From Chrysogorgia sp. JL179-B06 (taxonomy: Eukaryota; Cnidaria; Anthozoa; Scleralcyonacea; Chrysogorgiidae): 64,000 nt of DNA. Shown here one piece after another: positions 15,927-41,133 of this stretch. The position numbers were made by a program, and so were the translations under genes. Location of the stretch: contig JAYKKM010000416.1 of assembly GCA_035772405.1 (NCBI GenBank), positions 1,768,001-1,832,000 of the forward strand, read 5' to 3'. The first letter of the stretch is position 1; every line of letters begins with the position of its first letter. The notes below the pieces were generated by a model that worked only from the letters and a program-made list of their open reading frames with translations, made no database searches and was not told the origin of the DNA.

Positions 15927-17442
15927 TTCTTCACTGAAAATCTTTGATGTGGCTGGCAAGTATCTTGATCTTATATACGCTCACAATCCCGATCGCTTTC
16001 GAAACGGGTTGGTCTGCGATTTCGAGAACCTGTACTCGATCAAATTATCTGTTACCATGCATACGCTTTTTGTCTACTAAAAGTTGAGAATTTAATATGA
16101 GACTCAACATATGAAATTGCTGTATGGAAATATGTTAACTGACAACTGTTCTGAGGTAACTGTAATATTTTTTATAAGCTTTGTTGCCTGTATTGTTCAT
16201 TGTTATGTCATACAAAATAAAGTCGATGCTACATTTTATTGTTTCATATGATATATACCAAGTACTAAGTAGCAATGTTGCCATTGAATAACCCTGTTTC
16301 ACTTGATATTTTTACCTGTAAGCTTAAAATGGGGCTCCAACATGTTCTGGGTTATGAGTAAGTTTGTATCGATTGTTCATATTATTATACACGAATGCTT
16401 ACAAATGAACACATGCAGTATATAAATCTCTGACACCCATACCAACTATAAAATAGTTTGTTATTGTGTGCTGGTTTACCAGTGACGGGTCTGTTCAGCC
16501 ATGTACTTTCCATTGTCCCTCAACCCCACAAATACACACCTTTCAAACTGATTTTTGGCATTCATGATTACCAAAACAGCAATTGTCCTGATATTTAACA
16601 TGAGGCAGGCTAGCCCACTTGCCAGACTGACTCACAAGCACACCATTTGCAAACTGTTACTTGGTCTGTACAGCCAGATACGTACCTTTCGAACTGAATT
16701 TTGGCCTTGACTACATGCATGGAAAGCTAGTCACTAGTATGTATAAATATAATGCCTCTCAAATAATAAATATGCTAAAATTATGAATATGTTTACTGGC
16801 TCAAAATGTTATATAACTTCAAAGAAATAAAGATTTTGAATTACATTTCTTTAAACTGTTTTATAATAGCTTATGACACCTTGCTACCGCCAACTAAATG
16901 GTTTGATTTACTGCTATGCCTTATACACTGAGAAAAAGGTTAACTGATGTAATGCTTGCTCAAACTGAACCTGTTTGCCGGACTGACCAGATGAATTGTT
17001 ATTACTGAGCACAGGCCGGCTCGTTTGCCAGGATGACCCTGTTTGCTAGAACTGAATTAGGTCAGCAAACAGGATGGCTCATTTGGCAGGGCAGACTTCT
17101 CAGTAAGCATGCAGCTTGGATACTGAGCGAACTCACCTTCATATAATCAAAGCCATTGGCCAACACTATGTTATGGGTTTGCAATGATGGAAAATGTAAC
17201 CACCCCCGCACTGACAGCTGTATCAATATCATTGACAATTTATAAGCATTTTAGTTACGTTATTATTTTTGTCTTTGTAAACCTATGTATGTATGTATCC
17301 TACAGTATATACCAATATTGGTGTTTGTTATGGATTAAAGATTATTACATGTAACATTGTACCTACAACTATAGAATTTGTGTATATTGAATTAAAATCG
17401 CTGAATTTGCCTGCCATGTCTTTCAACAGTAGCCCGAGTTAA

Positions 17443-18220: not shown

Positions 18221-19512
18221 TTACTCGGGCTACTGTGGTAGCCGAGTCTAGGTTTCGGCTCTGTTTATTATTTTTTTTATTATTACTCGGGCCTCCCCCG
18301 AAATGTCGCGAAATGGCAATTCTTGCATCATCCCACTTGGGTCTGGGTACGAGATCGATCTGAACCACTGCATATATTTATGCGCCATTGTCATATTTTT
18401 AATATTCATCTGGTTACCTTTCCTCGAGTGTTCTTCACTGAAAATATTTGATGTGGCTGGCAGTATCTTGCATGATCTCACGATGCTTACAATCGCACAC
18501 GCCGATCGCCGAAGACCTACGGCTACACTAAAAGATAGGTCTCTGTCTGCGATCTCGATATAAACCGTACACTGAAAATGCCGTACCTGTACGCTGATGT
18601 TACTCGATTAAACCTATGTTTAACAAATTAATATGAAACTCAACGTATGAATGCTGTGTGAAAATATGTTAACTGTTCTGAGGTAACTGTGATATGTTTT
18701 ATAAGCTTTGTTGCCTGCATTGTTTATTGTTTATAAAACTCAACATATGAATGCTGTGTGAAAATATGTTAACTGTTCTGAGGTAACTGTAATATGTTTT
18801 ATAAGCTTTGTTGCCTGCATTGTTTATTGTTTATATGTCTATATACAAAATAAAGTCGATGCTAATCAACAGTTTATTGTTTCATACACAATATATAAAC
18901 CTTCGACATTATAATTATTTAGAGATTTTAGAGCAACCTTTTTTGAATTCTATAATTGCTTCTCGAATAAACCTGTTTCACTTGATATGTGTAAGCTTAA
19001 ATGGGCCTCCAAAATGTGCTGGTTATCAATAAGTCTGTATCGATCAACTCTCTGACACCCATACCAACTATCAAGATCAAAGAGTAAAGAGTTTGTTATT
19101 TGCTGGTTTACCAATGACAACCTGTTGCCATGTACTTTCCATTGTTACAACAGTTACTTGGTCTGCACAGACAGATACAAACTTTTCATACTGATTTTTG
19201 GCTAGTTTCATGATTACTATAGCTGTATATGAAGGCAAGCTGTACATGCAGGAGGCAAGCTCGCTCTCTAATCGAGATAGTAATAATAGTCCTGATATTA
19301 CAGTACATGAGGCAGGCTAGCCCACATGCCAGACTTGCTAACAAGCACACCATTTGCCAACTGTTACTTGGTCTGTACAGCCAGATACATTTTTGATATT
19401 ACATGAAGCGAGCTGGCCCAAGGCTCAAAATGTTGACTTCACAAAGAAATAAAGATTTTGAATTATATTTCTTTAAGCTGTTTTGCTTATGATGTCTTGC
19501 TACTGACAGCTA

Positions 19513-19543
19513 CACTGTAAATGAAAAAGGGCTGAAACGACCC
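19513..19543 (+). repeat. Left TIR of the giant element
   Basis: 31 bp beginning CACTGTAAATGAAAAAGGG and ending GAAACGACCC. It differs from the right TIR only at position 20 (C here, T on the right when read inward). Confidence 0.92.
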
Positions 19544-21240
19544 AAAAAAGGGGGCCGAAACGGTGACCCCAGAATAGATCTTTTTTGGGGGTCAAAATGG
19601 CACCTATATGAAGATGGCCCCTAAGGGGTGATTTGGCCCCTCCAGGGTATGGGCCGTTTCAGCTTTAGGTAGGGGCTGTTTTAGAAGAAGCAGGGGCTGT
19701 TTCAACTTTTGACCAGGGCCATTTCAGAAAATCGTGGGGCCATTTTGGAAAATCAAGGGGTCGATTTGGCTCCTATTCGGAGGCATTCTGGCTCCAAAAA
19801 AGTGCCGATTCAGCTTGTAGAGCGGAGCTATTTTGGTTCCAACAATAGAGAGCAGTTTCAGCCCCCAATGAAGGGCTGTTCTGGAAGAAGCAGGGGCTGT
19901 TTCAACTTTTGACCAGGGCCATTTCAGAAAATCGTGGGGACATTTTGGAAAATCAAGGAGTCAATTTGGCTCCTATTCGGAGGCATTCTGGCTCCAAAAA
20001 AGTGCCGATTCAGCTTGTGGAGCGGAGCTATTTTGGTTCCAACAATAGAGAGCAGTTTCAGCCCCCAATGAAGGGCTGTTCTGGAAGAAGCAGGGGCTGT
20101 TTCAACTTTTGACCAGGGCCATTTCAGAAAATCGTGGGGCCATTTTGGAAAATCAAGGAGTCAATTTGGCTCCTATTCGGTGGCTTTATAGCCCCCAAAA
20201 AGTGTCGATTCAGCTTGCGGAGCGGAGCTATTTTGGCTCCAACAATAGAGAGCAGTTTCAGCCCCCAATGAAGGGCTGTTCGGGAAGAAGCAGGGGCTGT
20301 TTCAACTTCTGAGAAGGGCCATTTCAGAAAATCGCGGGGCCATTTTGGAAAATCAAGGAGTCAATTTGGCTCCTATTCGGTGGCTTTATAGCCCCAAAAA
20401 AGTGTCGATTCAGCTTGCGGAGCGGAGCTATTTTGGCTCCAACAATAGAGAGCAGTTTCAGCCCCCAATGAAGGGCTGTTCTGGAAGAATTAGGGGCTGT
20501 TTCAACTTTTGACCAGGGCCATTTCAGAAAATCGTGGGGCCATTTTGGAAAATCAAGGAGTCAATTTGGCTCCTATTCGGTGGCTTTATAGCCCCCAAAA
20601 AGTGTCGATTCAGCTTGCGGAGCGGAGCTATTTTGGCTCCAACAATAGAGAGCAGTTTCAGCCCCCAATGAAGGGCTGTTCTGGAAGAAGCAGGGGCTGT
20701 TTCAACTTCTGAGAAGGGCCATTTCAGAAAATCGCGGGGCCATTTTGGAAAATCAAGGAGTCAATTTGGCTCCTATTCGGTGGCTTTATAGCCCCAAAAA
20801 AGTGTCGATTCAGCTTGCGGAGCGGAGCTATTTTGGCTCCAACAATAGAGAGCAGTTTCAGCCCCCAATGAAGGGCTGTTCTGGAAGAATTAGGGGCTGT
20901 TTCAACTTTTGACCAGGGCCATTTCAGAAAATCGTGGGGCCATTTTGGAAAATCAAGGAGTCAATTTGGCTCCTATTCGGTGGCTTTATAGCCCCCAAAA
21001 AGTGTCGATTCAGCTTGCGGAGCGGAGCTATTTTGGCTCCAACAATAGAGAGCAGTTTCAGCCCCCAATGAAGGGCTGTTCTGGAAGAAGCAGGGGCTGT
21101 TTCAACTTCTGACAAGGGCCATTTCAGAAAATCGTGGGCCCATTTTGGAAAATCAAGGAGTCAATTTTGCTCCTATTCGGTGGCATTATGGCCCAAAAAA
21201 AGTGTCGATTCAGCTTGCGGAGCCGAGCTATTTTGGCTCT
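19544..21240. repeat. Left subterminal array with a 200-bp tandem unit
   Basis: 19544-19690 holds single degenerate words such as GGGGCCGAAACGG and GGGGCTGTTTTAG. From about 19690 a unit of exactly 200 bp repeats seven to eight times (anchor GACCAGGGCCATTTCAG or its variant at 19909, 20109, 20309, 20509, 20709, 20909, 21109). Alternate copies match better than neighbours (20309 with 20709, 20509 with 20909), giving a 400-bp higher-order unit. Each unit is itself made of related words of the type GGGCTGTTTTGG. The recurrent 67-codon frames here are by-products of the repeat. Confidence 0.92.
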
Positions 21241-22329
21241 ATATTTTAGTCATTATACGGACCCAAAACAAGCCAATATACAGCAGATTAAAAGTTAGCA
21301 AAATTTTTGAACCGTTTGGACCAGTATGGGGCTTGGACCTGCAACCAGATTCGAACAAAAGATTAAAATACAGCAACTGTACAATATTTAGAATGAATAA
21401 CAATTGTAATTAAACAGAAAATATTATCATTTTCATTTGCAAAGTTAACAAAAGAAATAATATACGGAACCATAACTAGCAATATTAATAACCTAAAGGC
21501 ATTGTCTAATATCACATTGATTACTGTACTTGCTGTAACCTATTTTGCGAAAAACTTGCGTAAGAGTTCGACTGTCTGAACAAATAAAATTTTTCAATTC
21601 ATTGATAACAATAACCAAAAAATAATAGCCAAAATATAAACATGGTTCTCATGAAATACTTATGAAAATGCATTGAAAAATTGCAACCCTTTTGCTTAGT
21701 GTTGCAAAGAACTACAGTTTCCAAAAAGGATAACACACCCTTGGCGTTACCATAATATATATTAAAACATAGAAACTTGTCAACAAGGAAAGAACAGCCT
21801 CAAAACACCATTTGTTTGTTATTATACTCCAATGCAGTTCCAAGGACCACAATATCAGGTTGTTCCAAGTTTGACACAACAAGTTTCACTTTTTCATGCT
21901 CCTAAAAATAACCAATCAGATAAAAAATTAATCTATTGCCTTTCAATATTTTTCGACCTACAGTTCTAGTACAAACTTAATAAAATCTTGAATAATTCTC
22001 TATGAAGAAAAAATTCCAACTTTCTTCATGACGAGAAATGAAAGACATTTAGGGGGCGGGACGGAGGAAGGTGTTGGGCAATGGGCACTATACTATTACC
22101 CAGACTACCAACAATACATTTTCACGGTTATTTTCAGGAATAGAATTGTCCAGTAATTTAACATACAGTAGTTTAATTCATTGGATTTCTGACTCTGCAC
22201 TCCCCATCCAATCAATAATTTATTTTTTATGGAAATGAGAAATAAATTGGTTTCCATCACCTGTTTGCTTGTTTAATATACTGCATAACAGTATAACACT
22301 GTTTTATATATAATACTGCTGTTGTGAAT
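21241..22329. other. AT-rich non-coding stretch in the giant element
   Basis: No gene, RNA or tandem repeat is recognised. Short frames (for example 21180-21413) run on from the repeat and lack any motif. Confidence 0.6.
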
Positions 22330-22430
22330 GTGGGAGAACTTGGAGTAGACAGACGATACATGGACGATCGTCAAGCTCGTATCCTCAGAAAAATTATGTC
22401 CCAGACAGGAATCGAACCTGTAATATAACA
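22330..22430 (-). mobile_element. 5'-truncated tRNA-derived SINE fragment
   Basis: On the minus strand it reads AGGTTCGATTCCTGTCTGGG (a T-arm with an exact B box), then a body with TTTTTCTGAGG. The A box and the 5' tRNA half are missing. The TTTTTCTGAG body word resembles that of the SINE at 60929-61020, suggesting the same family. Confidence 0.5.
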
Positions 22431-23479
22431 CTGTTTGTTAAGTGTTAAGTTATTTATTAAAATTATTCATATATTTAAAAATACCGCCATTGTCGCGTAG
22501 TTTTCAAAGCCGAGTGTTTATTACAGTTTAAGAGACTGGTAGCTAAACAAATGGCAGACAATATATCGAACCACGATACATGCAAATATACCGTCTAGTA
22601 TGCAATGAATTGCACTCGAAATTATGCGCAGATTCCGGAAAAAGGACTAATAATACAAGATTCGACACTGATAAAACGCAGAGATCACAAATACACGCAA
22701 AAAATCATATATACAACCGAAGGAACTGTCTCTTCGGCAACTCGAATCAGATTGAAACCAGCTTGTAAACTGACTAAAATGGATGTATTTGAATGGCCAT
22801 GGGAAGCAAGGTCAGTGGTAATTATGATTTCTCCATATTTGTTCTTGTTGAGCATTTGGTCAAAATTCGTTCGCGATAAACGCATAGTTCAGAACGTAAA
22901 AACAGGTTTGCCAATGACATTTGAGTGACTGATACTTCACTTTGCTTGTATCAGATTGAAATGATAGGTTTCTCAAATATCTAGAGACATATTAAGACAT
23001 TTCTTTATTCTCCCTATGTAATTACTATTCGGGTGAGAATTGTGTTGTATACAGTACATTCCCAACGCGCGTGTGTGGCCTTCATTTCTCGCCATGCAAA
23101 CAAATTCCCAGAATAACACTGATGTCACTAGTAGCAGAGCTAGCCATATTGCAGTATTTGCAATACAATACAACAAATAGCACAATTATGTTAGACTGTT
23201 AGTTATACAGTGACGCTTAAGAGTTTTGTAACATGCACCTGGCTTTGTGCGTGTAGTCTCAGTGTACATGCAGAGAAACTACTGTACACTCACATGTTGT
23301 GTAAGACAATTCTGATATATAGCAAAATTATAAGTTGTGTAGTTGTGTACTGCCGAGGTTTTAATGCATGTACTGTATGTGTGTATTGTATGCACTGTAT
23401 GTATGTAGAGTATGTGTATATGTGTGTATGTATGTCGAAATGTCAGTAGTGCATTCCTGCAGTTTACAAGTTTACAACC

Positions 23480-23551
<72 letters not shown>

Positions 23552-24112
23552 TGTATATATATTTATTTCAAAGAAACAAAACACACATTTTTTAATTAAC
23601 AAAACTATACAGTACAGATACATACCATGATTGGCAGTTTGAATTTTTCTATCCAGTTAGTCTTAGCCTTGAATAATTATAAAGAGCATGGTTGTGATAT
23701 ACTGTATGTTCAATTTTACAATCTACAATCTACAGTGTACAGTGCAGTGGTAAATATACATGTGTTCCAACACTAATCAAACATACAAACCAGTACTGCA
23801 AGCCTGCCTTTGGCATCAGCAAATAATTTGTCTGTTTGCAACTTGCAAATCATGATACATACCGTAGATGTGTGAAACTAGCATTAATGTCACTAAATAC
23901 CTCAACTTATTTTTGGGGCGTTGATCCAAACACTGAATTAATACACAAACAGGACACTTTCTTGAGGTGTTCCAGTACTGGTAATTTTGAAACCTAATTC
24001 AGCAGTATGCCAAAGCTATAAACATCTGTTGCAGCACATAGATACAACCCGTCATATAATGTACAGGGTTAATGACAATGTGTTGATAGTTACCTTTGTA
24101 AAGTTTCTTTTA
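22431..24112. other. Non-coding stretch with TG- and TA-rich microsatellite sequence
   Basis: Contains GT/TGTATG-rich sequence at about 23340-23450 and a pure (TA)n run at 23487-23550. Small frames at 22580-22928 and 22973-23185 show no domain I know. Nothing else is recognised. Confidence 0.55.
23487..23550. repeat. (TA)n microsatellite
   Basis: About 32 uninterrupted TA dinucleotides. Confidence 0.97.
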
Positions 24113-24766
24113 TTACTTGGAATTTTCTTTACTACACAATTTCTTATATAATTTGCCTAATTTAAAATTTAAATATACTATTTTAAGTTCTAATTGCATA
24201 GCAGAACCGTGGATAACCATAATATTATCTGACTTAACGTCACAATGGAGAATACCCATTGTGTGTAAATAAAAACATCCATCACAACACTTGCCCAGGC
24301 TATCCAACTAATTATTTTGCACAAGAGAAATAGGAGCAATACCTTTCAACAATGAAAATACTGTTCAGCATTTTGAATCAGTCAGACGACAAAATTCCAT
24401 AATAAGTAATTTGGGATTAATATCAAGGCAAACACAAAGGGAGAACATCTGTTGGAAACTCGAGTCAAAATAGACATCAACATGAATTACACTATATCAC
24501 CTTCCCCGACCAGTAATAATATTATTATCAGGTGGGGTCTGCACACAGGCTACAACAAGTACAGATTCACCAGAAACATGTAACCTCGTAAGCTTACAAG
24601 CTCCAAAACAACCCTTTCCTAGAATGATTCCCTTTTCTTTATCATTCAAAACTAAATTTAGCTGATCTCTTCTTAGTATAGCTTTTACATTTCTTAACTT
24701 TTCACATTTTAAGAATTGTAGTTCTGCACTGCATTTTTTCTCTGGTCCTCTTCCTTGGCTTATCAT
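24113..24766 (-). pseudogene. Protein kinase domain, decayed
   Basis: Three parts of a kinase domain appear in order on the minus strand. 24766-24497 has the glycine-rich loop ILGKGCFGACK. The intervening stretch (about 24430-24380) reads DINPKLLIMEFCRLTD in another frame, the hinge region. 24307-24113 has the catalytic loop YLHTMGILHCDVKSDNIMV with its Asp, Lys and Asn. The Mg-binding DFG is replaced by LNF, and the expected VAIK-type lysine after the glycine loop is not visible. A frame change or an unrecognised intron separates the parts. Probably a captured host kinase that has decayed inside the giant element; the kinase subfamily is not resolved. Confidence 0.7.
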
Positions 24767-26760
24767 TTTCAGATCTCAAATAAACTACAAATGACTTCAG
24801 GCTATTAATTGCCTTTTTCATCTCTCTTCTATGTTTGGAAAAATATCAGTCATCATATTTCTAATCTGTACAGTTCTGTTCCTACACAACATCTTCGCAC
24901 CCACACATCGTGTTTAGGACAGAGTTCCAGAACATGAAAATGTTCTGCTCACAACCCTGCAGGTTCCCAAAGAGTGTGCAGCCCATGTATATCATAGTAC
25001 AGACCGTAGAAATGTGATTAAATAATATATTTCTAAATCAAACATATAACATTGATAGATTTTTTATATACAAGTGTAAAGCTAATTAAGAAACATTATT
25101 TTGCTTCAAGGGCAGCATAACCAGAGAATTGTATATGTTGTGCAGTTCTACAAACTCTTGAAACCTAAAAGTGATCTCACACTCTGGGGAAAAAGGGCCG
25201 CCAAATTATAAGAATGATTGAATTTCTATCCAATAAGCTGAAATAAACCACCAATGTGAATGTCCATAATATTTGCCAGTTCAGGCATTCAGAAACTGTC
25301 CGTCTGTTTATTTATTAATCCTAAGCTTCCTATAACTTGTTGAATAATTTTCTCGATAGAACTGTCAAAGATTCAATGATAAAAGATCTTTAAATCGTAG
25401 GCATTAGACAAAATTGCAATAATTAAGTCTTAACTAGCTTAAATAATAAATAGGAGAAGATTAAACATACACATCAAAATTACTATAAAGGTTTAAATAT
25501 ATTGGAATGTAAAATATGGCAATTTTAAGACTTACATGCACAGATGAAGCCACGTTGGCGACAGCCAATACACCTACTCGGGAGAACTAGCTTGGTTGGG
25601 AGAACTATCGGCAGACGATGGCGATTGTCATACGCCTGGGCCTCGGCTAGAAGTGTTTGGTACATGTACACCATAACACCATCATCTTCATTCTCGCCGT
25701 CACTCGCACACGCACACTACAAATATAACAAACAGAGAAGCTGGAATTTAATACTACAAGGCTCGTATTCGTTTTGTAGCTTATATACGCAACAATTTGA
25801 ATAAGCTTAGACCAGTGATCAGGTCGACACGGAGATCAGCCATGTTGAAAATTCTTCCACAGCGGACAATCCAACTACGAGGCGTTTCTTGAACGTATTT
25901 CCTGAGAAAAGTAACGTCTTTAGTATCGAACGCGAGTTTAGCGTTAGATTTTATCCAATTTTCCTTCTTCGAATCCCAACGGTCACTTGTAGAATAGGCG
26001 CCAAATTCGCAAATAGTTTCTACGCATGCTCGGAACCTCTGAATGAATATATCGCGGGCGCATACATTCTCGTTCCCAGAGCCCGGGTCGTCTGCGCCGG
26101 GAATAGAACATTATTTTGTTAGTCTAGTATGATAGAAATTGTTAAAAAGTTACAATGTATAAAATTTGCGAAATCGAAAATTTTAACGTGAATTCTTACC
26201 TTCTCTTTAATTACGTCGCTAAGAAATCCCTTGAATTTCTGGCGAAATTTGAATGAAGGAAAAAAGTGTCATTTCTGCGTCAACTTCGTACAAGGCTGTC
26301 ATGTCCTCGCAATTTAATTCCTCACTTTCTACATATACAAATATAAAAAATCACATTTATTACACGATATTGATCAAAAAGATAGAACTGCAATGTATAG
26401 TGTCATTGCAATAAAAGTATATAACATCGCGAAACTTACCGATACGTTCCACGACCTTCTGGGAAATCATGGGACAGCAACCAATCTTTTACTTCTGAAC
26501 ATAAAAATGTTGTCTGGAAGCATCCATATTGATGTAGCACGATGTAGCTGGTTAAGTCTAACTCGCAAAACGGTTCAAATGTATGATGTATCTACTAACC
26601 AGAATGGCCCATATTTATACTATTGTCTTACTGGCCATACATGACACTTGAAATTCGATAGATGATATTCTCGACCAATAAAAACAATCGAGAAGATAAT
26701 ATCAATGCTTTCACGCGCGTCGCTTTAAAACGCGCGAGCCGATTACACAGAGAGAACTAT
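24767..26760. other. Internal non-coding stretch of the giant element
   Basis: No gene or RNA is recognised. Short frames at 25544-25804, 25889-26122 and 26393-26644 have no visible motif. A small inverted pair (GATGATATTCTCGA and TCGAGAAGATAATATC) lies near 26661-26704. Confidence 0.55.
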
Positions 26761-27005
26761 TTGGAAGGAGAGTCGATTTGAGACACGGTTGAGTCGACTT
26801 GAAACGCGCGAGTCGATTTGACACGCCCTAGTCGAGTCGATTTAACACACACGGGTCGATTTGACACGCGAGAGTCGATTTGACACACGTTAGTCGATTT
26901 GACAATTGACATGAGTCGATTTGAAAATCGGGGGTCGATATGACACGCGGGCGTCGATTTGAAGTACGGGAGCTAAATTGGCACGAGGGAGTCGATTTGA
27001 CAGAG
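26761..27005. repeat. Degenerate GTCGATTTGACA array
   Basis: About a dozen words of the form GAGTCGATTTGACACG, spaced 16-25 bp, with variable 4-8 bp linkers. The same word returns at 36105-36160 near the right end of the element. Confidence 0.85.
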
Positions 27006-30000
27006 GTATGTCCAGTATAGCCATCGGATAGCAGATGGTAACGCACGGTAGCAGGTAGTAACAGATGGTAGCAGATGGAAGCAGATGGTAGCAGACGGTA
27101 ACAGACGGTAACAGATTGTAACAGATGGTAGGGGACTTAGAATAGACGGAGAGTAGGACGGTTGCTACCGATGGTACCGATGGTGCAGATGGTAACAGAC
27201 GGTAACAGACGGTAGTAGGTAGTAACAGATCGTAGCAGATTGTAGCAGACGGTAACAGACGGTAACAGATTGTAACAGATGATAGGGGACTTAGAATAGA
27301 TGGAGAGTAGGACGGATGCTACCGATGGTACCGATGGTGCAGATGGTAACAGACGGTAACAGACGGTAGCGGGTAGTAACAGATCGTAGCAGATGGTAGC
27401 AGACGGTAACAGACGGTAGCAGGTAGCAACAGATCGTAGCAGATTGTAGCAGACGGTAACAGACGGTAACAGATTGTAACAGATGGTAGGGGACTTAGAA
27501 TAGATAGAGAGTAGGACGGATGCTACCGATGGTACCGATGGTGCAGATGGTAACAGACGGTAACAGACGGTAGCGGGTAGTAACAGATCGTAGCAGATGG
27601 TAGCAGACGGTAACAGACGGTAACAGATCGTAACAGATGGTAGGGGACTTACAATAGATGGAGAGTAGGACGGATGCTACCGATGGTACCGATGGTACCG
27701 ATGGTGCAGATGGTAACAGACGGTAGCAGGTAGTAACAGATCGTAGCAGATGGTAGCAAACGGTAACAGACGGTAACAGATTGTAACAGATGGTAGGGGA
27801 CTTAGAATAGATGGAGAGTAGGACGGATACTACCGATGGTGCAGATGGTAACAGACGGTAACAGACGGTAACAGACGGTAGCAGGTAGTAACAGATCGTA
27901 GCAGATGGTAGCAGACGGTAACAGACGGTAACAGATTGTAACAGATGGTAGGGGACTTAGAATAGATGGAGAGTAGGACGGATGCTACCGATGGTACAGA
28001 TGGTAACAGACGGTAACAGACGGTAACAGACGGTAGCAGGTAGTAACAGATCGTAGCAGATGGTAGCAGTCGGTAACAGACGGTAACAGATTGTAACAGA
28101 TGGTAGGGGACTTAGAGTAGATGGAGAGTAGGATGGATGCTACCGATGGTACAGATGGTACCGATGGTGCAGATGGTAACAGATGGTAACAGACGGTAGC
28201 AGGTAGTAACAGATCGTAGCAGATGGTAGCAGACGGTAACAGACGGTAACAGATTGTAACAGATGGTAGGGGACTTAGAATAGATGGAGAGTAGGACGGA
28301 TGCTACCGATGGTACCGATGGTGCAGATGGTAACAGACGGTAACAGACGGTAGCAGGTAGTAACAGATCGTAGCAGATGGTAGCAGACGGTAACAGACGG
28401 TAACAGATTGTAACAGATGGTAGGGGACTTCGAATAGATGGAGAGTAGGACGGATGCTACCGATGGTGCAGATGGTAACAGACGGTAACAGACGGTAACA
28501 GACGGTAGCGGGTAGTAACAGATCGTAGCAGATGGTAGCAGACGGTAACAGACGGTAACAGATTGTAACAGATGGTAGGGGACTTAGAATAGATGGAGAG
28601 TAGGACGGATGCTACCGATGGTACAGATGGTAACAGACGGTAACAGACGGTAACAGACGGTAACAGACGGTAGCAGGTAGTAACAGATCGTAGCAGATGG
28701 TAGCAGTCGGTAACAGACGGTAACAGATTGTAACAGATGGTAGGGGACTTAGAGTAGATGGAGAGTAGGATGGATGCTACCGATGGTACAGATGGTACCG
28801 ATGGTGCAGATGGTAACAGATGGTAACAGACGGTAGCAGGTAGTAACAGATCGTAGCAGATGGTAGCAGACGGTAACAGACGGTAACAGATTGTAACAGA
28901 TGGTAGGGGACTTAGAATAGATGGAGAGTAGGACGGATGCTACCGATGGTACCGATGGTGCAGATGGTAACAGACGGTAACAGACGGTAGCAGGTAGTAA
29001 CAGATCGTAGCAGATGGTAGCAGACGGTAACAGACGGTAACAGATTGTAACAGATGGTAGGGGACTTCGAATAGATGGAGAGTAGGACGGATGCTACCGA
29101 TGGTGCAGATGGTAACAGACGGTAACAGACGGTAACAGACGGTAGCGGGTAGTAACAGATCGTAGCAGATGGTAGCAGACGGTAACAGACGGTAACAGAT
29201 TGTAACAGATGGTAGGGGACTTAGAATAGATGGAGAGTAGGACGGATGCTACCGATGGTACAGATGGTAACAGACGGTAACAGACGGTAACAGACGGTAG
29301 CAGGTAGTAACAGATCGTAGCAGATGGTAGCAGTCGGTAACAGACGGTAACAGATTGTAACAGATGGTAGGGGACTTAGAGTAGATGGAGAGTAGGATGG
29401 ATGCTACCGATGGTACAGATGGTACCGATGGTGCAGATGGTAACAGATGGTAACAGACGGTAGCAGGTAGTAACAGATCGTAGCAGATGGTAGCAGACGG
29501 TAACAGACGGTAACAGATTGTAACAGATGGTAGGGGACTTAGAATAGATGGAGAGTAGGACGGATGCTACCGATGGTACCGATGGTGCAGATGGTAACAG
29601 ACGGTAACAGACGGTAGCAGGTAGTAACAGATCGTAGCAGATGGTAGCAGACGGTAACAGACGGTAACAGATTGTAACAGATGGTAGGGGACTTCGAATA
29701 GATGGAGAGTAGGACGGATGCTACCGATGGTACCGATGGTGCAGATGGTAACAGACGGTAACTTACGGTAGCGGGTAGTAACAGATCGTAGCAGATGGTA
29801 GCAGACGGTAACAGACGGTAACAGATTGTAACAGATGGTAGGGGACTTAGAATAGATGGAGAGTAGGATGGATGCAACCGATGGTGCAGATGGTAACAGA
29901 CGGTAACAGACGGTAGCAGGTAGTAACAGATCGTAGCAGATGGTAGCAGTCGGTAACAGACGGTAACAGATTGTAACAGATGGTAGGGGACTTAGAGTAG

Positions 30001-30890
30001 ATGGAGAGTAGGATGGATGCTACCGATGGTACAGATGGTACCGATGGTGCAGATGGTAACAGATGGTAACAGACGGTAGCAGGTAGTAACAGATCGTAGC
30101 AGATGGTAGCAGACGGTAACAGACGGTAACAGATTGTAACAGATGGTAGGGGACATAGAATAGATGGAGAGTAGGACGGATGCTACCGATGGTGCAGATG
30201 GTAACAGACGGTAACAAACGGTAACAGACGGTAACAGACGGTAGCGGGTAGTAACAGATCGTAGCAGATGGTAGCAGTCGGTAACAGACGGTAACAGATT
30301 GTAACAGATGGTAGTGGACTTAGAATAAATGGAGAGTAGGATGGATGCTACCGATGGTACCGATGGTACCGATGGTGCAGATGGTAACAGACGGTAACAG
30401 ACGGTAGCAGGTAGCAACAGATCGTAGCAGATGGTAGCAGTCGGTAACAGACGGTAACAGATTGTAACAGATGGTAGGGGACTTAGAATAGATGGAGAGT
30501 AGGACGGATGCTACCGATGGTACCGATTGTGCAGATGGTAACCGACGGTAACAGACGGTAGCGGGTAGTAACAGATCGTAGCAGATGGTAGCAGATGGTA
30601 ACAGACGGTAGCAGGTAGTAACAAATCGTAGCAGATGGTAGCAGACGGTAACAGACGGTAACAGATTGTAACAGATGGTAGGGGACTTAGAATAGATGGA
30701 GAGTAGGACGGATGCTACCGATGATACCGATGGTGCAGATGGTAACAGACGGTAGCAGGTAGTAACAAATCGTAGCAGATCGTAGCAGACGGTAACAGAC
30801 GGTAACAGATTGTAACAGATGGTAGGGGACTTGGAATAGATGGAGAGTATCACCGATGGTGCAGATGGTGCAGATGGTACAGATGGAGGG
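27006..30890. repeat. GGTAACAGAC minisatellite with about 150-bp higher-order unit
   Basis: A 10-bp core (CGGTAACAGA, with AGCAGATGGT and ACCGATGGTG variants) is organised into units marked by GGGGACTTAGAATAGATGGA. The marker recurs at 27131, 27285, 27489, 27643, 27796 and 27951, mostly 153-155 bp apart with one interval of 204, and on to about 30830. Some groups of units are duplicated as larger blocks. The minus-strand Leu/Ser/Tyr/Pro-rich frames are by-products. Confidence 0.95.
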
Positions 30891-31525
30891 TTCGGTAATA
30901 AAGTACTGGGAAGGAGTGATGGCATTGCGTCGTTTTATCGTCGGAGAGTGCTAGGTGGCTTTTCCTGTAGTATGAGTTGTTGGGTTTAGTGTTTTTAAAA
31001 GTTGATGTGTTTCGCCGTTTTGTATGTGACTTCATTTTTGGGGAAGATGTTGCAGAAAGTGCGATTGATTCTGTTTTGAGACAGGTATCAGTCGCTCGTT
31101 GTTTGCCGTTTGATTCGTGAATTTCAAAGTTTCCTTCAAGACGCACAGTTTCATGGCAAGATCCTTATATTCCATATATTCTATGAGTAGAGGAACAGAT
31201 ATTGCGCTAGAAACGAACGCTCACTGCTGTAAATCATTGCCATTGTATTGGACAAGGCCATCGTAATCGAAGCCGTTGAGAATATTATAGAACACGCTGA
31301 CAGACGACGGCACGAAGAGTGCGGTTCACAATATTCGACAAACTCTTGAGTCAGACATCACTATACAAATTGATTTAAACGACTTTTGTAAACAGCTTAT
31401 TATGTCGTAAGAAGATAACCAAACAACAAGAAAACGTAATAAATTGAGGTAGTTAGAAGGTTAGAGGCCAGTTTCACAAATCAAAACAATAACACAAGCT
31501 CGCAAAGCATTAGCTGGACACTCTT
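30891..31525. other. Unique sequence after the minisatellite
   Basis: A minus-strand frame (30850-31146) has a non-repetitive N-terminal half beginning MRLEGNFEIHESNGKQ, of unknown nature. No splice structure is obvious. Nothing else is recognised. Confidence 0.4.
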
Positions 31526-33445
31526 ATATGGAAACAGGTGCGATCGTTAAAGTTTCTTAACACAAACAATTTCTGCACATCACTACTATTTATTATTAAT
31601 ATGTCTCTTCATTTTCTACCAACATTTCTCGCCTTTATTTACATCCATTTACGACCAAACTGGGGAGAAAATAAAAATATCACACCACATTCCTTTCTGG
31701 CACCCCACTTCGTCACACCCCAATATCCTGTAATAAGCTGCAGCGATCGCGGCAAAACAAACATAGTCAGCGGTATTGATAGCTGGCTATATGGACGAAG
31801 GAAACAAAGACAAGTGTCTTTTACTATCGCAAGCACAGCTTTTCATTGCAGTTGATGTTATTAGTAAGGCTTATTTGAAACGTCGAATTTATCATGTGTC
31901 GAATGTAATGTGTATTAGGTTCGACAAATTGGACGTCGGTTTCAAACATAGAATTTATGATTTTGTCGAACGTAATGGGCCTCCCGTAAAAATAAGTCGT
32001 TCGGATTGCATTTTAAAAGTACTGAACTTAAATATCGTCCCAGTTTATTTTGACGAGCCGTATTACATTTGACACATGATAAATTGGACGTTTGAAAACG
32101 TCGCACTTTGGTCGTTATATCCGTCCGAAGGGGTGGAACTTAATATTTCGTTCGACCGCAATTACGAACTTATCATGTGGATAATGCGATGTATTTGATT
32201 GGACACATGACGAATTCGACGTTTGAAACAGCTGTAACTGCGCCAAGGATATAAGTGAAAATAAGTGTGTTAAGTTAGTAAGCATTAGATCAATTATGTT
32301 GAAAGACATTTGTAATTGTGAAGTAAGAAAACTAAGAGATAGATTAGTATTGATAGATTGGAATATAGCGTATTTTTATTTTGGTTAAATATGGGCGATA
32401 GGGCGGACGGGAAAGGAAGTGTGGTGATAAAAAGTTATTGGGAGGATGTAGACTTGTAAGAAAATGCATGGAGAAAGTAAAAATATTTTTAATGAAAGTA
32501 AGTTTCGTTGAGTGGACGAGCAAGATAATGAGAATAGTTATATGAAAATAGTTATTAGTGGAGTATTAATATTTAAGGGGAGAGATTTATATGTAAATAG
32601 TTATTAGTGTGAATGTGTTACTTAGCGGAAGTGAGGAAACGTTTGTTTTGATTAAAGAATTGTTTTGACTTAAGAATTAGATGATGTGATGATGGCGAGC
32701 AATATTTATAACAACACGTGTTTTGGATTGTTGTGAACGTTTTTGTGTAAGTTAAATATGGTATGACGTTAATAATTTTTGGAAGGGTTTTTGTTAGAAG
32801 GTCAGAGAATGACGGATTAATTATAGAAGGATGTGACAGATTAAGGTGAATATTTATAAGCTAATTACTATTACAGGATATTGGGGTGTGATGAAGTGGG
32901 GAGAAAAGAAAGGAATGTGTTGTGATATTTTTATTTTCTCCCCAGTTTGGTCGTAAATTGATGTAAATAAAGGCGAGAAATTTTGGGAGAAAATGAAGAG
33001 ACATGTTAATAACAAATAGTAGTGATGTGCATAAATTGTTTGTGTTAAGAAACTTTAACGATCGTACCTGTTTCCATATAATCGCTGCGATTGCGGCAAA
33101 ACAAACATAGTCAGCCGTATTGATAGCGGGCTTTGTCGTGTCACAGCTAATCAAAGCTATGGCTATGGACGAAGTAAACAAAGACAACTGTCTTTTACTA
33201 TCGTAAGCACAGCTTTTCATTGTAATTGATGTTATCATTAAGGTCTATTTGAAACGTCGAATTTATCATGTGTCGAATATAATGTGTATTAGGTTCGACA
33301 CATTGGACGTCGGTTTCAAACATAGAATTTATCATTTTGTGGAAAGTAATGGACCTCCCGTAAAAAGAAGTCGTTTGGATTGCATTTTAAAAGTAGTGAA
33401 CTTAGATCTCGTCCCAGTGTTTCATAGGTGGAACTTATCATGTGC
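31526..33445. repeat. Two-copy duplication with one module inverted
   Basis: Module 1 lies at 31526-31745 (+) and again at 32868-33082 in inverted orientation (landmark CGACCAAACTGGGGAGAAAA). Module 2 lies at 31749-32060 and 33085-33425 in direct orientation (landmark TTGAAACGTCGAATTTATC). 32081-32865 between them is AT-rich and unrecognised. Module 2 carries the dispersed word with CGAA, TTATCATGTG and CGAA. Confidence 0.8.
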
Positions 33446-33604
33446 ATAATGCGATGTATTTGATTGGACACATTATCGTTTTGGGGTTCGGCAGATATTT
33501 CGAATGAGCGTTCGCTGTGATGGACAGGATCGCTGAGCGTGTGGTTTTCATATGATAGCTACGATCGTCGATTTTAAAATTGAGCGATCGCAACGATGTC
33601 AAGA

Positions 33605-35780
33605 GTTTGTTTGGGCATAGTTTTGGGTTAAGAAACATTTATATGTGGTATGAATGAATTGTTGCGTAGGATATTTGTTACAAGGTTATTTGAGAACGTA
33701 AGATATTTTTTGCAAGTTTTGTTAAGAACGAGATAATACATAAGAGACAAATTATGTATGGTCATTAAAGCTATGGAGTATCGATAGCGATGGTGTAGCG
33801 AAACATATTTGTTTGAAGTTTTTAAGAACGAGGTAATACATAACAGACAAAGTATACATGTGACAATTGAAGTCATCGTAATAAATAGTAGTGATACATG
33901 TCAAGAGTTTGTTTGGGTTAAGAAACATTTATATGTGTTATGAATGAATTGTAGCGTAGGATATTTGTTACAAGGTTATTTGAGAACGTAAGATATTTGT
34001 TGCAAGATTTTTAAGAACGAGGTAATACATAACAGACAAAGTATGCATGTGACAATTGAAGTCATCGCGGTAATAAATAGTAGTGATACATGTCAAGAGT
34101 TTGTTTGGGTTAAGAAACATTTATATGTGTTATGAATGAATTGTAGCGTAGGATATTTGTCACAAGGTTATTTGAGAACGTAAGATATTTGTCGCATGTT
34201 TTTTTAAGAACGAGATAATACATAACAGATAAATTATGCATGATCATTAAAGCTATCGGTGGCGATGGTGTAACGTAACATATGTGTTTGAAGTTTTTTA
34301 AGAACGAGGTAATACATAACACACAAACTATATATAGCTGAATTGTAATACATAACAGACAAAGTATATACATGTGACAATTGAAGTCATCGTAATAAAT
34401 AGTAGTGATATATGTCAAGAGTTTGTTTGGGTTAAGAAACATTTATATGTGTTATGAATGAATTGTAGCGTAGGATATTTGTTACAAGGTTACGTTATTT
34501 GAGAACGTAAGATATTTGTTGCAAGATTTTTAAGAACGAGGTAATACATAACAGACAAAGTATGCATGTGACAATTGAAGTCATCGTAAGAGTTTGTTTG
34601 GGTTAAGAAACATTTATATGTGTTATGAATGAATTGTAGCGTAGGATATTTGACACATGGTTATTTAAGAACGTAAGATATTTGTTGCAAGTTTTTTAAG
34701 AACGAGGTAATACATAAGTCATAACAGATAAAGTATGGATGTGACAATTGAAGTCATCGCGGTAATAAATAGTAGTGATACATGTCAAGAGTTTGTTTGG
34801 GTTAAGAAACATTTATATGTGTTATGAATGAATTGTAGCGTAGGATATTTGTCACAAGGTTATTTGAGAACGTAAGATATTTGTTGCAAGTTTTTTTAAG
34901 AACGAGATAATACATAACAGATAAATTATGCATGATCATTAAAGCTATCGGTGGCGATGGTGTAACGTAACATATGTGTTTGAAGTTTTTTAAGAACGAG
35001 GTAATACATAACACACAAACTATATAGCTGAATTGTAATACATAACAGACAAAGTATATACATGTGACAATTGAAGTCATCGTAATAAATAGTAGTGATA
35101 CATGTCAAGAGTTTGTTTGGGTTAAGAAACATTTATATGTGTTATGAATGAATTGTAGCGTAGGATATTTGTTACAAGGTTACGTTATTTGAGAACGTAA
35201 GATATTTGTTGCAAGATTTTTAAGAACGAGGTAATACATAACAGACAAAGTATGCATGTGACAATTGAAGTCATCGTAAGAGTTTGTTTGGGTTAAGAAA
35301 CATTTATATGTGTTATGAATGAATTGCATGTAGCGTAGGATATTTGATACATGGTTATTTAAGAACGTAAGATATTTGTTGCAAGTTTTTTTTAAGAACG
35401 AGGTAATACATAACAGATAAAGTATGGATGTGACAATTGAAGTCATCGCGGTAATAAATAGTAGTGATACATGTCAAGAGTTTGTTTGGGTTAAGAAACA
35501 TTTATATGTGTTATGAATGAATTGTAGCGTAGGATATTTGTTACATGGTTATTTAAGAACGTAAGATATTTGTTACAAGTTTTTTTAAGAACGAGATAAT
35601 ACATAACAGATAAATTATGCATGATCATTAAAGCTATCGGTGGTGATGGTGTAACGTAACATATGTGTTTGAAGTTTTTTAAGAACGAGGTAATACATAA
35701 CACACAAACTATATGGCTGAATTATTTGGGTTTAGAAACACTTGTGTGTGGTATGAATGAATTGTAGCGTAGGGACAGAT
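33605..35780. repeat. AT-rich tandem array with about 690-bp higher-order period
   Basis: The phrase TTAAGAAACATTTATATGTG recurs at about 33629, 33920, 34109, 34431, 34610, 34802, 35122, 35297 and 35491. Between repeats lie GAACGAGGTAATACATAACA and GTGACAATTGAAGTCATCG. The blocks starting at about 34107 and 34799 are near-identical. Minus-strand frames of 60-110 codons are by-products. Confidence 0.9.
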
Positions 35781-35799
35781 AAAGTATCCACTATTATTG

Positions 35800-36095
35800 A
35801 AGCGATCGGAGCCATCGGTAGCATCGGTGCCATCGGTAGGAAAGTTGGCAGATGTGTAGGAGCATCAGTTTACAATCGGTCGCGATCGGTAGGCATCTGA
35901 TGCAGATGCATGCCGATGGTTAGTACGCTTAGGAAGGGATCAGTTTACAATCGGTTGCGATCGGTAACCATCTGATGCAGATGCATACCGATGGTTAGTA
36001 CACTTAGGATAGGAAGGGAAGGGATCAGTTTACAATCGGTCGCGATCGGTAACCATCTGATGCAGATGCATACCGATGGTTATATTGGACATGTA
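35800..36095. repeat. Three-copy tandem with CATCTGATGCAGATG palindromes
   Basis: Three units of about 80-95 bp share CAGTTTACAATCGGT, GCGATCGG and CATCTGATGCAGATGCAT. The words are strongly self-complementary. Confidence 0.88.
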
Positions 36096-36472
36096 TGATT
36101 TGACAACGGAGTCGATTTGCCACCGGGAGTCGATTTGACAAATGGGTCGATTTGACATGTGTAAGGGCCGATTCGGAAAAAGAGAGCCAAAATGAATTAA
36201 TTGGGGGCTGATATGGACATCATAAGTAGCGCTGCAAGTGGAGCCGTAATAGCCCCAGGAATGAGAGTCGTTTTGATCTGTGGGGCTGAATTGGAAAACA
36301 GTGGGGCTGAATTGAAAAATGGCAGGGCTGTTTTGGAAACGGGTAGGGCCAAATTGGCTTTTTAGTGTACCTAAAATGGCCCTGTTAGTGTCGATCTAGC
36401 TCTCGAATTCCAAAATGGCTTTCACGTAGGGCCAAAACAGCTTCGGCTCCAACAGGGCTAAAACGAAATTTG
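36096..36472. repeat. Right subterminal array of the giant element
   Basis: 36105-36160 has GAGTCGATTTG words like those at 26761-27005. 36165-36472 has GGGGCTGAATTGGAAAA, AGGGCTGTTTTGGAAAC and GGGCCAAATTGGC words like those of the left subterminal array. The two ends are therefore built of the same vocabulary. Confidence 0.82.
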
Positions 36473-36503
36473 GGGTCGTTTCAACCCTTTTTCATTTACA
36501 GTG
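36473..36503 (-). repeat. Right TIR of the giant element
   Basis: Inverted partner of 19513-19543, ending CCCTTTTTCATTTACAGTG just before the TA at 36504-36505. Confidence 0.92.
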
Positions 36504-36524
36504 TAAATGGTTTGATTTAAATGC

Positions 36525-36689
36525 ACTTGTCACTGGAAACCCCAGGTAAGTATGAGAGATTAGACTTATCAAGAAACAAATCTAAGAAAATGCCCCACCT
36601 ACAGTATAGGGGAAAATAACATCCTAAACCCCACCTACAAGTCACCTTCGGGGTTTCCTTGGGTGCCGTAGGGGTTTCCAGTGACAAGT
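36525..36689. mobile_element. 165-bp MITE in repeat copy B
   Basis: Ends ACTTGTCACTGGAAACCCC (36525-36543) and its exact inverted complement (36671-36689), a 19-bp TIR. Copy A lacks it at the matching site near 16926. The superfamily is not clear. Confidence 0.75.
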
Positions 36690-37260: not shown

Positions 37261-37423
37261 TTGACGACTTTGCGGGTCATCAACGACTCATTTTAACTGC
37301 GCCCGTAATGAAAGAGTTAATGCACAATGGTATTATTTTTGGATCTATATACCTTATAATTTCCTCGTTCTCAAAAAGATCGCGCATTACATATAAACAA
37401 AGGTTTATCTCTGTGATATCGCT

Positions 37424-38430
37424 ATTGAATGAAACAATATTATATGTTGTTGCCTCGTTCTATTTCAAAACTACGCAACATATCGCTATTGAATGAAACA
37501 ATATTATATGTTGTTGCCTCGTTCTATTTCAAAACTAGTACGCAACATATCGCTATTGAATGAAACAATATTATATGTTGTTGCCTCGTTCTATTTCAAA
37601 ACTACGCAACATATCGCTATTGAATGAAACAATATTATATGTTGTTGCCTCGTTCTATTTCAAAACTACGCAACATATCGCTATTGAATGAAACAATATT
37701 ATATGTTGTTCATGCCTCCGCGTTCTATTTCAAAACTACGCAACATATCGCTATTGAATGAAACAATATTATATGTAGTTGCCTCGTTCTATTTCAAAAC
37801 TACGCAACATATCGCTATTGAATGAAACAATATTATATGTTGTTGCCTTGTTCTATTTCAAAACTAGTACGCAACATATCGCTATTGAATGAAACAATAT
37901 TATATGTTGTTGCCTCGTTCTATTTCAAAACTACGCAACATATCGCTATTGAATGAAACAATATTATATGTTGTTGCCACTTGCCTCGTTCTATTTCAAA
38001 ACTACGCAACATATCGCTATTGAATGAAACAATATTATATGTTGTTGCCTCGTTCTATTTCAAAACTACGCAACATATCGCTATTGAATGAAACAATATT
38101 ATATGTTGTTGCCTCGTTCTATTTCAAAACTAGTGCGCAACATATCGCTATATTGAATGAAACAATATTATATGTTGTTGCATGCCTCGTTCTATTTCAA
38201 AACTACGCAACATATCGCTATTGAATGAAACAATATTATATGTTGTTGCCTCGTTCTATTTCAAAACTACGCAACATATCGCTATTGAATGAAACAATAT
38301 TATATGTTGTTGCCTCTTCTATTTCAAAACTACGCAACATATCGCTATTGAAGGAAACAATATTATATGTTGTTGCCTCGTTCTATTTCAAAACTACGCA
38401 ACATATTACATATCGCTATTCAATGAAACA
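37424..38430 (+). repeat. 64-bp tandem array, about 15 copies
   Basis: Unit of 64 bp with CGCTATTGAATGAAACAATA, TGTTGTTGCCTCGTTC and CAAAACTACGCAACAT. Copies are nearly identical, so the expansion is recent. Small insertions fall at the same two places: before GCCTCG and inside ACTACGC. Small plus-strand frames (37182-37496, 38024-38566) are by-products. Confidence 0.95.
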
Positions 38431-40627: not shown

Positions 40628-40630
40628 TGA

Positions 40631-41133
40631 CACAAGAGTTTCCAAACAGGGCTGCGAGATGCCAAACCACGATCCTGCGTTTATTGCGACAAAACGACAC
40701 ACAAGGCGAGTGAATGTGAGAAGGTTACTACACCCAACGAGCGGAAGAAGATCTTATCGGAGAAGAAACTTTGTTTCAACTGCGTGGGCGGGAAACATCG
40801 GGCCTCAAATTGCCTAAGTAAATCGTCATGCCAAGTATGCTCGAAACGCCACCATACATCCATCTGCGACGAGAAGAAATCGAAGAGAGAAAGGTTAATG
40901 TCATCCAGAGGTGGAGAAAGAGTTATTCATCCTGTTGCGGTGGAATGAAGTGTCGAGCACTGGTAGACACTGGCGCCTCAAGTTGTTACGCATCAGCACA
41001 ACTGGTGGATAAACTGAAGATCAAACCACATGAAGTCAAGTACAAGAAAGTGGAAATGCTAATGGCTGCTGCAACATCAAGAATGGAAACCTACAGGACG
41101 ACCATCGCCTCAACATCTAGTGACTACGAGTAG
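40631..41133 (+). pseudogene. BEL/Pao zinc knuckles and aspartic protease, frameshifted
   Basis: In the gag frame after the stop, three cysteine clusters follow: CVYCDKTTHKASEC, CFNCVGGKHRASNC and CQVCSKRHHTSIC (about 40676-40860). The frame closes near 40945. The protease continues in another frame with ALVDTGASSCYAS at about 40960, the DTGA active site of a retropepsin. A TAG at 41131 ends that piece. The order knuckles-protease fits BEL/Pao; the breaks make it inactive. Confidence 0.82.

What the first reader, a model, noticed from the sequence alone, without database searches (positions are those of the whole stretch)
19511..36505. A 17-kb TIR element with TA duplication and a preserved empty site in the same window
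Seen: 31-bp TIRs (30 of 31 matching) at 19513 and 36503, TA on both sides, and a paralogous copy at 16895-16896 with one TA and the same flank AATGGTTTGATTTA. Known: CACTR ends, 2-3-bp duplications and subterminal repeats are features of CACTA/Mirage/Chapaev transposons. Inferred: a giant, mostly satellite-filled, non-autonomous member of that group. An element this large with so little coding, mobilised by 31-bp ends, would be unusual.
Basis: partly seen in the sequence, partly recalled or inferred. Interest (0 to 1): 0.92.

Follow-up and report, generated by a model that had tools for sequence, protein, structure and literature searches.

The report
Seven-kb transposon enlarged by nested element
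What looks like one 17-kb giant jumping element is a 7.9-kb transposon carrying the remains of a kinase-like gene, with a second, satellite-filled 9.1-kb element inserted inside it; each was likely moved by enzymes encoded elsewhere in the genome.

Summary
In detail: 31-bp inverted ends (30/31), TA on both sides, and a paralogous empty site in the window. The inference of a giant, intrinsically satellite-filled element is not. The window copy is a composite. (1) The outer element (19513-27002 plus 36098-36503, about 7.9 kb) belongs to a family with 354 end matches in the 781-Mb host genome. Seven other copies were read end to end: 5.4-11.0 kb. All eight copies have exact 2-bp target duplications (five TA, one each CA, TG, AG). 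(2) The 9.1-kb satellite block (27003-36097) is a second mobile element with imperfect inverted ends and an 8-bp duplication (ATTTGACA). Its site is uninterrupted in 6 of 7 sister copies, and its right end matches at 39 other scored places. No transposase was recognised in the outer element. It carries decayed exons of a coiled-coil/protein-kinase gene, found inward of 82 of 95 listed right-type ends. The genome has 150 scored Transposase_21 (En/Spm) matches, likely including the mobilising enzyme, but none was tied to these ends. This is an ordinary kind of object in an interesting form: a high-copy, kinase-carrying, CACTA-like family, likely in a marine invertebrate, enlarged here by nesting.

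The parts
19511..19512 (.). left copy of the 2-bp target duplication (TA) of the outer element
19513..19543 (+). left TIR of the outer element (C variant), CACTGTAAATGAAAAAGGGCTGAAACGACCC
   Evidence: matches genome-wide
19673..21239 (+). left subterminal 200-bp tandem repeat (7.8 copies) rich in GGGCYRWWTY motifs; repeat number varies between copies
   Evidence: TRF; length variation; motif counts
24212..24247 (-). kinase catalytic-loop remnant (HCDIKSDNIMV in sister copy C375)
   Evidence: position; Pkinase E 3.3e-6 on the sister-copy 46-aa piece, below the curated cut-off
24500..24775 (-). kinase N-lobe exon remnant (ILGKGCFGACKLTRLHVSGES)
   Evidence: 150 scored genome matches (147 distinct places); 44% to kinase P0121; no Pfam match above cut-off on its own
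25784..26110 (-). further exon-like remnant on the same strand
   Evidence: no Pfam match
26294..26326 (-). N-terminal exon-like remnant (SEELNGEDMTALYEVDAEMRHFFPSF.. in L041)
   Evidence: (position); no Pfam match
26770..26963 (+). right subterminal GTCGATTTG repeats, next to the insertion point of the nested element
26995..27002 (.). left copy of the 8-bp target duplication ATTTGACA of the nested element
27003..36097 (.). nested 9.1-kb satellite-filled element; ends GAGGTATGTCCAGTATAGCCATCGG / (rc) CATACATGTCCAATATAACCATCGG, ATGTCC.. core 18/20
27031..30886 (+). roughly 10-bp CAGATGGTAA repeats in 144-204-bp higher-order units, inside the nested element
31524..33081 (.). inverted repeat (175-bp arms, 95%) inside the nested element; inverted pairs also in sister copies C149 and C310
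36098..36105 (.). right copy of the 8-bp target duplication ATTTGACA
36473..36503 (-). right TIR of the outer element (T variant)
36504..36505 (.). right copy of the 2-bp target duplication (TA)
16895..16910 (+). paralogous empty site (one TA + AATGGTTTGATTTA)
36525..36689 (.). separate small inverted-repeat insert in the right flank of the outer element

Best explanation
It is a 7.9-kb DNA transposon with CACTG ends and a 2-bp target duplication, into which a second, 9.1-kb satellite-filled element with an 8-bp target duplication has inserted; both lack a recognised transposase and were likely mobilised in trans, the outer one probably by one of the genome's En/Spm (CACTA) transposases. Shown: the outer family exists as many copies, seven of which were read at 5.4-11 kb with exact 2-bp duplications; the inner block has its own ends, an 8-bp duplication and an uninterrupted site in sister copies; its right end is dispersed and nearly identical between loci. 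Shown by similarity: the minus strand of the outer element, reading inward from its right end, holds degenerate pieces of a coiled-coil plus protein-kinase gene that recur across the family. Inferred: cut-and-paste by a transposase that binds the 31-bp TIR and the directional subterminal repeats; capture or inheritance of the kinase gene before amplification; nesting after the outer element had landed; growth of the inner block by tandem duplication.
For: Outer family: 354 end matches against 0 in the control. All 7 fetched copies are complete, 5,358-10,965 bp, and their 2-bp flanks match exactly in 8 of 8 including the window: TA x5, CA, TG, AG; the C329 copy sits in a TA run and is uninformative. 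Among 156 pooled ends, 34 adjacent convergent pairs lie under 45 kb against 6 in other orientations, and 24 of the 34 are 5.9-8.0 kb. Flanking dinucleotides of 65 exact T ends with A or T at -3: TA 55, TG 6, CA 4. Identity of 7 copies, the window included, to C437: 89.2-97.0%, window 96.6%. Nesting: 8-bp ATTTGACA on both sides; site uninterrupted in 6 of 7 sister copies, three exactly and three with 3-5 edits; right end in 40 scored places of 182 candidates, the window included, 98-100% identical except one at 94%; 8 of 8 loci inspected, the window included, stop at the same base; C310 copy has both ends and 8-bp duplication GATAATAT. Subterminal motif GGGCYRWWTY: 11-39 forward against 2 reverse per copy, nearly all near the ends. 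Kinase remnant: Pkinase E 3.3e-6; P0121, a named kinase, E 1.4e-27, 44% over 181 aa; P0122 matches coiled coil plus N-lobe in the same order; 82 of 95 listed T ends carry the exon inward on the same strand within 10 kb. Mobilising enzyme candidate: Transposase_21, 150 scored matches of 215 candidates, 149 over the cut-off, many in 680-919-aa frames.
Against: No Transposase_21 match is tied to these ends. Of the 67 matches compared with 130 listed ends, only C442 lies within 20 kb of one, on the outer side. Of all 150 compared with the 150 kinase-exon matches, three lie within 20 kb: C442 and C455 on the right-end side, 8.4 and 11.2 kb off, and C508, 11.8 kb on the left-end side, unread. The listing of ends is partial: one search printed 100 of 354 places; the left-type list was asked again and never answered. 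The published plant CACTA duplication is 3 bp (PMC10741241), here 2 bp. For the nested element, only 2 of 3 copies with both ends visible show matching 8-bp flanks (window, C310); C511 does not. Four of the first five bases of its two ends differ. Its left-end census did not complete. Kinase scores are below Pfam's curated cut-off, and the query joined pieces of several copies. Seventeen of 35 listed left-type ends show no kinase exon.
Confidence: 0.88

Rival explanations
1. One giant satellite-filled CACTA-like element: the satellite arose inside the element and moves with it.
For: Both TIRs and TA duplications are intact at 17 kb. A satellite-carrying CACTA-like element of 16.5 kb is published (PMC8978399 section 10).
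Against: None of 7 other copies has an alignment over 150 bp to the block. It has its own ends and 8-bp duplication and is absent from the same site in 6 of 7 copies. Its right end occurs at many loci with unrelated flanks.
Confidence: 0.05
2. The satellite block grew in place by tandem duplication or a repair event in the GTCGATTTG repeats rather than by transposition.
For: The junction lies in a subterminal repeat array, inner-block lengths vary between loci (9,095, 7,139 and 6,344 bp), and the C511 copy has no matching 8-bp flanks.
Against: The same right terminus matches at 39 other scored places, nearly all at 98-100% identity, and stops at one base before unrelated flanks in the loci inspected; inverted ends and 8-bp duplications in two copies.
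Confidence: 0.06
3. Truly giant (19-38 kb) members exist, including an autonomous one, and the 7-kb copies are their deletion derivatives.
For: Seven convergent end pairs 19.1-38.5 kb apart; one Transposase_21 frame of 884 aa lies 11.8 kb on the left-end side of a kinase exon on C508, where no end is listed.
Against: In the T/T pairs C50, C165 and C269 each T end has its own kinase exon inward, as expected of two separate elements. No Transposase_21 match of the 150 lies inside any of the seven pairs. C6, C295, C221 and C61 pairs and the C508 place were not read.
Confidence: 0.15

Closest known systems
CACTA / En/Spm transposons, including animal 'TRC' elements such as SmTRC1 (PMC1636069, passages seen)
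   Same: CAC..GTG ends and subterminal repeats as in CACTA elements generally; 2-bp duplication and internal tandem repeats as in SmTRC1; Transposase_21 genes present in the same genome
   Different: CACTG instead of the CCC core of SmTRC1; no transposase recognised in the copies tested; carries kinase-gene remnants; plant CACTA duplications are 3 bp (PMC10741241)
Jozin CACTA-like element of Chenopodium quinoa (PMC8978399, section 10 read whole, other passages seen)
   Same: 16.5-kb CACTA-like element containing a 5.55-kb satellite array, so satellite cargo in CACTA is not new
   Different: Jozin encodes Transposase_21 and its array is shared between copies; here the array belongs to a different nested element with its own ends
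Tgmt*, 20.5-kb soybean CACTA (PMC2613891, passages seen)
   Same: large CACTA with asymmetric subterminal repeats
   Different: Tgmt* contains a 14.6-kb gene; 3-bp duplication
Pack-TIRs of animals (PMC8277862, abstract and passages seen)
   Same: TIR element with gene-derived sequence inside
   Different: the passages seen name only a few multicopy cases among 370; here the gene remnant is at 147 distinct places, and no host parent gene has been found, so capture is not shown
8-bp-duplication superfamilies (hAT, MULE, P, Merlin recalled; Zisupton per PMC12730594 passages)
   Same: nested element has an 8-bp target duplication in two copies
   Different: its ends (GAGGTATGTCC / CATACATGTCC) were not matched to any of them; no transposase search was run for it; superfamily unassigned

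Membership tests
CACTA/En-Spm (outer element) | CACTA/CACTG termini | tested here: met
   8 of 8 copies begin CACTG and end CAGTG
CACTA/En-Spm (outer element) | short target duplication of variable sequence: 2-5 bp for the wider CMCT group (PMC12730594), 2 bp in SmTRC1 (PMC1636069) | tested here: met
   8 of 8 exact 2-bp (TA x5, CA, TG, AG); C329 uninformative (TA run)
plant-type CACTA | 3-bp target duplication (PMC10741241) | tested here: not met
   the third base does not match in the CA, TG and AG copies
CACTA/En-Spm (outer element) | subterminal repeats | tested here: met
   directional GGGCYRWWTY and GTCGATTTG motifs concentrated at the ends; GTCGATTTG absent in C429
CACTA/En-Spm (outer element) | Transposase_21 DDE transposase encoded by an autonomous copy with the same ends | tested here: inconclusive
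   150 scored matches in the genome, none inward within 20 kb of a listed end (67 of 150 compared); one unread candidate on C508; none in the window (10 ORFs)
Mirage / ESTA / Tc1-mariner | target duplication always TA | tested here: not met
   CA, TG and AG duplications in C55, C301 and C429. That Mirage is TA-specific is recalled; TA for ESTA is from PMC12730594 and for Tc1/mariner from PMC10741241
Pack-TIR (gene capture) | captured sequence with an identifiable host parent gene outside TIR elements | tested here: inconclusive
   the kinase-exon search scored 150 of 216 candidates; the strong matches look like family copies and no parent was identified
hAT / MULE / other 8-bp superfamily (nested element) | superfamily-typical ends and transposase | not tested
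   no transposase-family search was run for the inner family; 8-bp duplications in 2 of 3 testable copies

The most novel reading that the evidence does not exclude
An animal En/Spm-like transposon family that carries its own accessory protein-kinase gene, transcribed inward from one end, amplified to well over a hundred copies; some copies (9 of 150 matches with stop-free frames of 105-138 aa over this exon) may still encode it, which would make the kinase a transposon gene rather than a captured passenger.
Probability: 0.15. Interest if true: 0.65.

Novelty: new member of a known kind. Interest (0 to 1): 0.38.

Why it matters
It shows how an apparent giant transposon can be a nest of two unrelated elements, each with clean, testable boundaries, and warns against reading size alone as evidence for giant mobile elements. 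The outer family adds a high-copy CACTA-like element with a kinase-gene cargo, likely in a marine invertebrate, in a setting where the gene-carrying TIR elements reported in animals include only a few multicopy cases in the passages seen. The nested satellite-filled family, nearly identical between loci and varying in length, is a good natural case for following how transposition may seed new satellite arrays.

Tried and rejected
Giant satellite-filled element: rejected. TA-specific superfamilies: rejected on CA, TG and AG duplications. 28-35-kb T/T pairs as giants: rejected as the default because each end has its own kinase exon and, in C269, its own right-end sequence. SAM domain: the N-terminal exon pair looked SAM-like to me but matched 0 Pfam families, so dropped. 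Coding constraint on the kinase piece: pN/pS 1.23 over 7 copies with a gapless match; two of nine rows (C429, C269R) had no gapless match and were left out. It therefore behaves as a passenger. Pfam on 10 ORFs of the window element: no match above cut-off. The end-proximity script for Transposase_21 held 67 of the 150 listed hits: I chose the leading ones and those on end-bearing contigs, leaving out C98 (over 1 Mb away); C290, 33.8 kb inside a C end, is beyond the 20-kb limit used. A later check compared all 150 hits with all 150 kinase-exon matches. Host: a decarboxylase ORF in the window is closest to unnamed ENA proteins; the named relatives nearest the top are stony corals, a crinoid and octocorals, so only 'likely a marine invertebrate' can be said.
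Full report
Observation. The 31-bp inverted ends, the TA on each side and the paralogous empty site are all present and far beyond chance. The right flank seems to stop matching after 15 bp only because a small inverted-repeat insert (arms 36525-36543 and 36671-36689) sits there. Beyond it the paralogous match resumes, with alignment score 33 against a maximum of 24 in 200 shuffles.

The family. The host genome (781 Mb, 522 contigs, unnamed eukaryote) contains 174 + 180 matches to the 31-bp end with up to 3 mismatches, against 0 + 0 for the reversed pattern. Seven other copies, chosen from the best left-end matches (7 of 39 other scored places; 364 candidates), were read. All seven have both ends, 5,358 to 10,965 bp apart, and identical 2-bp flanks (TA, CA, TG, TA, TA, AG, TA; the C329 copy lies in a TA run). 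A third base does not match in the CA, TG and AG copies, so the duplication is 2 bp. In 65 exact right-type ends preceded by A or T at -3, the flank is TA 55, TG 6, CA 4. In a partial pool of 156 ends, 34 neighbouring pairs are convergent within 45 kb and 6 neighbouring pairs are not. Of the 34, 24 are 5.9-8.0 kb apart, and 7 are wider than the window copy.

Why the window copy is 17 kb. Element positions 1-7490 and 16586-16991 align to the family; the 9.1 kb between show no alignment over 150 bp. In C437 the site reads uninterrupted. In the window ATTTGACA stands on both sides of the insert. Six of 7 sister copies have the uninterrupted site: C375, C437 and C361 exactly, C329, C55 and C301 with 3-5 edits; C429 lacks that stretch. 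The insert's two ends share ATGTCCARTATARCCATCGG (18/20), but four of the first five bases differ. Its right end was found in 40 scored places of 182 candidates, the window included. All are 98-100% identical except one at 94%, and their matches end at query base 97-101 of 101. Eight of eight loci inspected, one being the window, stop at the same base and continue into different flanks. Over 687-1491 aligned columns, 21 of 28 locus pairs are 96.9-99.9% identical; the other 7 all involve L035 (73.8-98.4%), whose inner content differs. Four more copies were fetched. A complete copy in C310 (7,139 bp) has GATAATAT on both sides. A copy in C511 (6,344 bp) has both ends but no matching flanks. In C149 and C80 no left end was found in the 10 kb read; C149 contains a second right end, so the family likely also nests in itself. 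The block is therefore best read as a second mobile element, likely recently active, whose length varies. Its superfamily is not assigned.

What the outer element carries. No transposase was recognised: 10 ORFs of the window copy have no Pfam match above cut-off, and none of the 150 scored Transposase_21 matches of the genome lies in the window's contig. On the minus strand, reading inward from the right end, are exon-like pieces. They include a coiled coil and a protein kinase: N-lobe ILGKGCFG.., a catalytic loop HCDIKSDNIMV and later kinase-like pieces. Pfam Pkinase gives 3.3e-6 on the 46-aa catalytic piece, below the curated cut-off. The joined pieces give two matches at E <= 0.001 among 1,185 candidates: P0121, carrying Pfam kinase domains and named a serine/threonine kinase (E 1.4e-27, 44% over 181 aa), and P0122 (E 6e-17), which has the same coiled-coil/N-lobe order. 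The N-lobe exon has 150 scored genome matches of 216 candidates, at 147 distinct places. It lies inward on the same strand within 10 kb of 82 of 95 listed right-type ends, 68 of them at 2-3 kb, and inward on the opposite strand of 18 of 35 listed left-type ends; the window's own right end is among the 13 misses because of the nested block. Seventeen of the 35 left-type ends have no such match, so a sub-class without the gene may exist. Substitutions in the best piece look neutral (pN/pS 1.23, 7 copies). The gene thus looks like a passenger in the copies read. Nine of the 150 matches have stop-free frames of 105-138 aa and were not read further. Whether it was captured from the host or belonged to the transposon is open.

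Wide pairs. Seven end pairs 19-38 kb apart exist. Three are T/T. For C269 both ends were read: they are alike over 1.6 kb, each matches the family's right end, and each has its own kinase exon further in. C50 and C165 likewise have one exon per end. These are most simply two separate elements. C6, C295, C221 and C61 (left-right types) remain unread.

How it likely works. The outer family has the cis anatomy of CACTA/En-Spm elements: CACTG ends, a 2-bp duplication and directional subterminal motifs (11-39 forward against 2 reverse per copy). The genome has 150 scored Transposase_21 matches, 149 over the cut-off, many in frames of 680-919 aa. Trans-mobilisation by one of them is the most likely mechanism, but no such gene was tied to these ends. 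Of 67 compared with listed ends, only C442 is within 20 kb, on the outer side. Of all 150 compared with the kinase exons, three lie within 20 kb. C442 and C455 are on the right-end side, farther out than the usual end. C508 (884-aa frame) is 11.8 kb on the left-end side; it is an unread candidate. I therefore call the family CACTA-like and do not claim membership by transposase.

Comparison with print. CACTA elements above 10 kb, some above 20 kb, CACTG termini and 3-bp duplications are given as standard for plants (PMC10741241, passages). En/Spm families of 16-20 kb occur in a red alga (PMC6431247, passage). A 16.5-kb CACTA-like element with a 5.55-kb satellite array is described in quinoa (PMC8978399 section 10). 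SmTRC1 has 2-bp direct repeats in 7 of 14 copies (PMC1636069, passages). The wider CMCT group shows CA..TG ends in most cases and 2-5-bp duplications (PMC12730594, passages). Animal Pack-TIRs number 370 in 100 genomes, with only a few multicopy cases in the passages seen (PMC8277862, abstract and passages). The listings of searches showed no paper on this family. They could not target it by name or host, the library is partial, and Repbase was not available, so this is weak evidence that it is undescribed.

Noticed in passing
window 1-8807: 14-bp satellite TAGTAAAGGAGTAA (about 628 copies) with extreme strand asymmetry (GC skew +0.93, AT skew +0.46 in the first 2 kb).
   Followed up: no
window 36525-36689: Small insert with 19-bp inverted arms ACTTGTCACTGGAAACCCC in the right flank of the outer element; leaving it out restores the paralogous alignment.
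   Followed up: partly
G000 C269:392638, C442:459052, C410:1241118, C475:12660143, C394:1059339, C451:241475, C61:2671382, C452:1781470, C309:1608900: Kinase exon matches with stop-free frames of 105-138 aa, unlike most copies, which share one TAA. Possibly a less decayed sub-family.
   Followed up: no
G000 C508:264580 and C508:276420: A Transposase_21 match in an 884-aa stop-free frame lies 11.8 kb on the left-end side of a kinase exon; no end is listed on this contig. Unread candidate for an autonomous or neighbouring element.
   Followed up: no
17 of 35 listed left-type (C) ends, e.g. C49:925521, C93:267310, C145:908899: Left-type ends without a scored kinase-exon match inward within 10 kb; may be a sub-class without the gene, or below the scoring limit.
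   Followed up: no
L037 (C149): A nested-family copy contains a second right end inside its satellite, suggesting self-nesting.
   Followed up: partly
window 57334-58278: Phosphatidylserine decarboxylase family ORF, 81% to unnamed ENA proteins, 76-77% to stony corals (Montipora, Porites) and a crinoid.
   Followed up: partly
window 13334-15706, 43930-46772, 39614-43167, 54534-56471: Long retroelement ORFs: two LINE-type reverse transcriptases and BEL/Pao-like fragments (types judged by eye).
   Followed up: no
window 37416-38447: 64-bp tandem array (about 15 copies) just downstream of the element.
   Followed up: no
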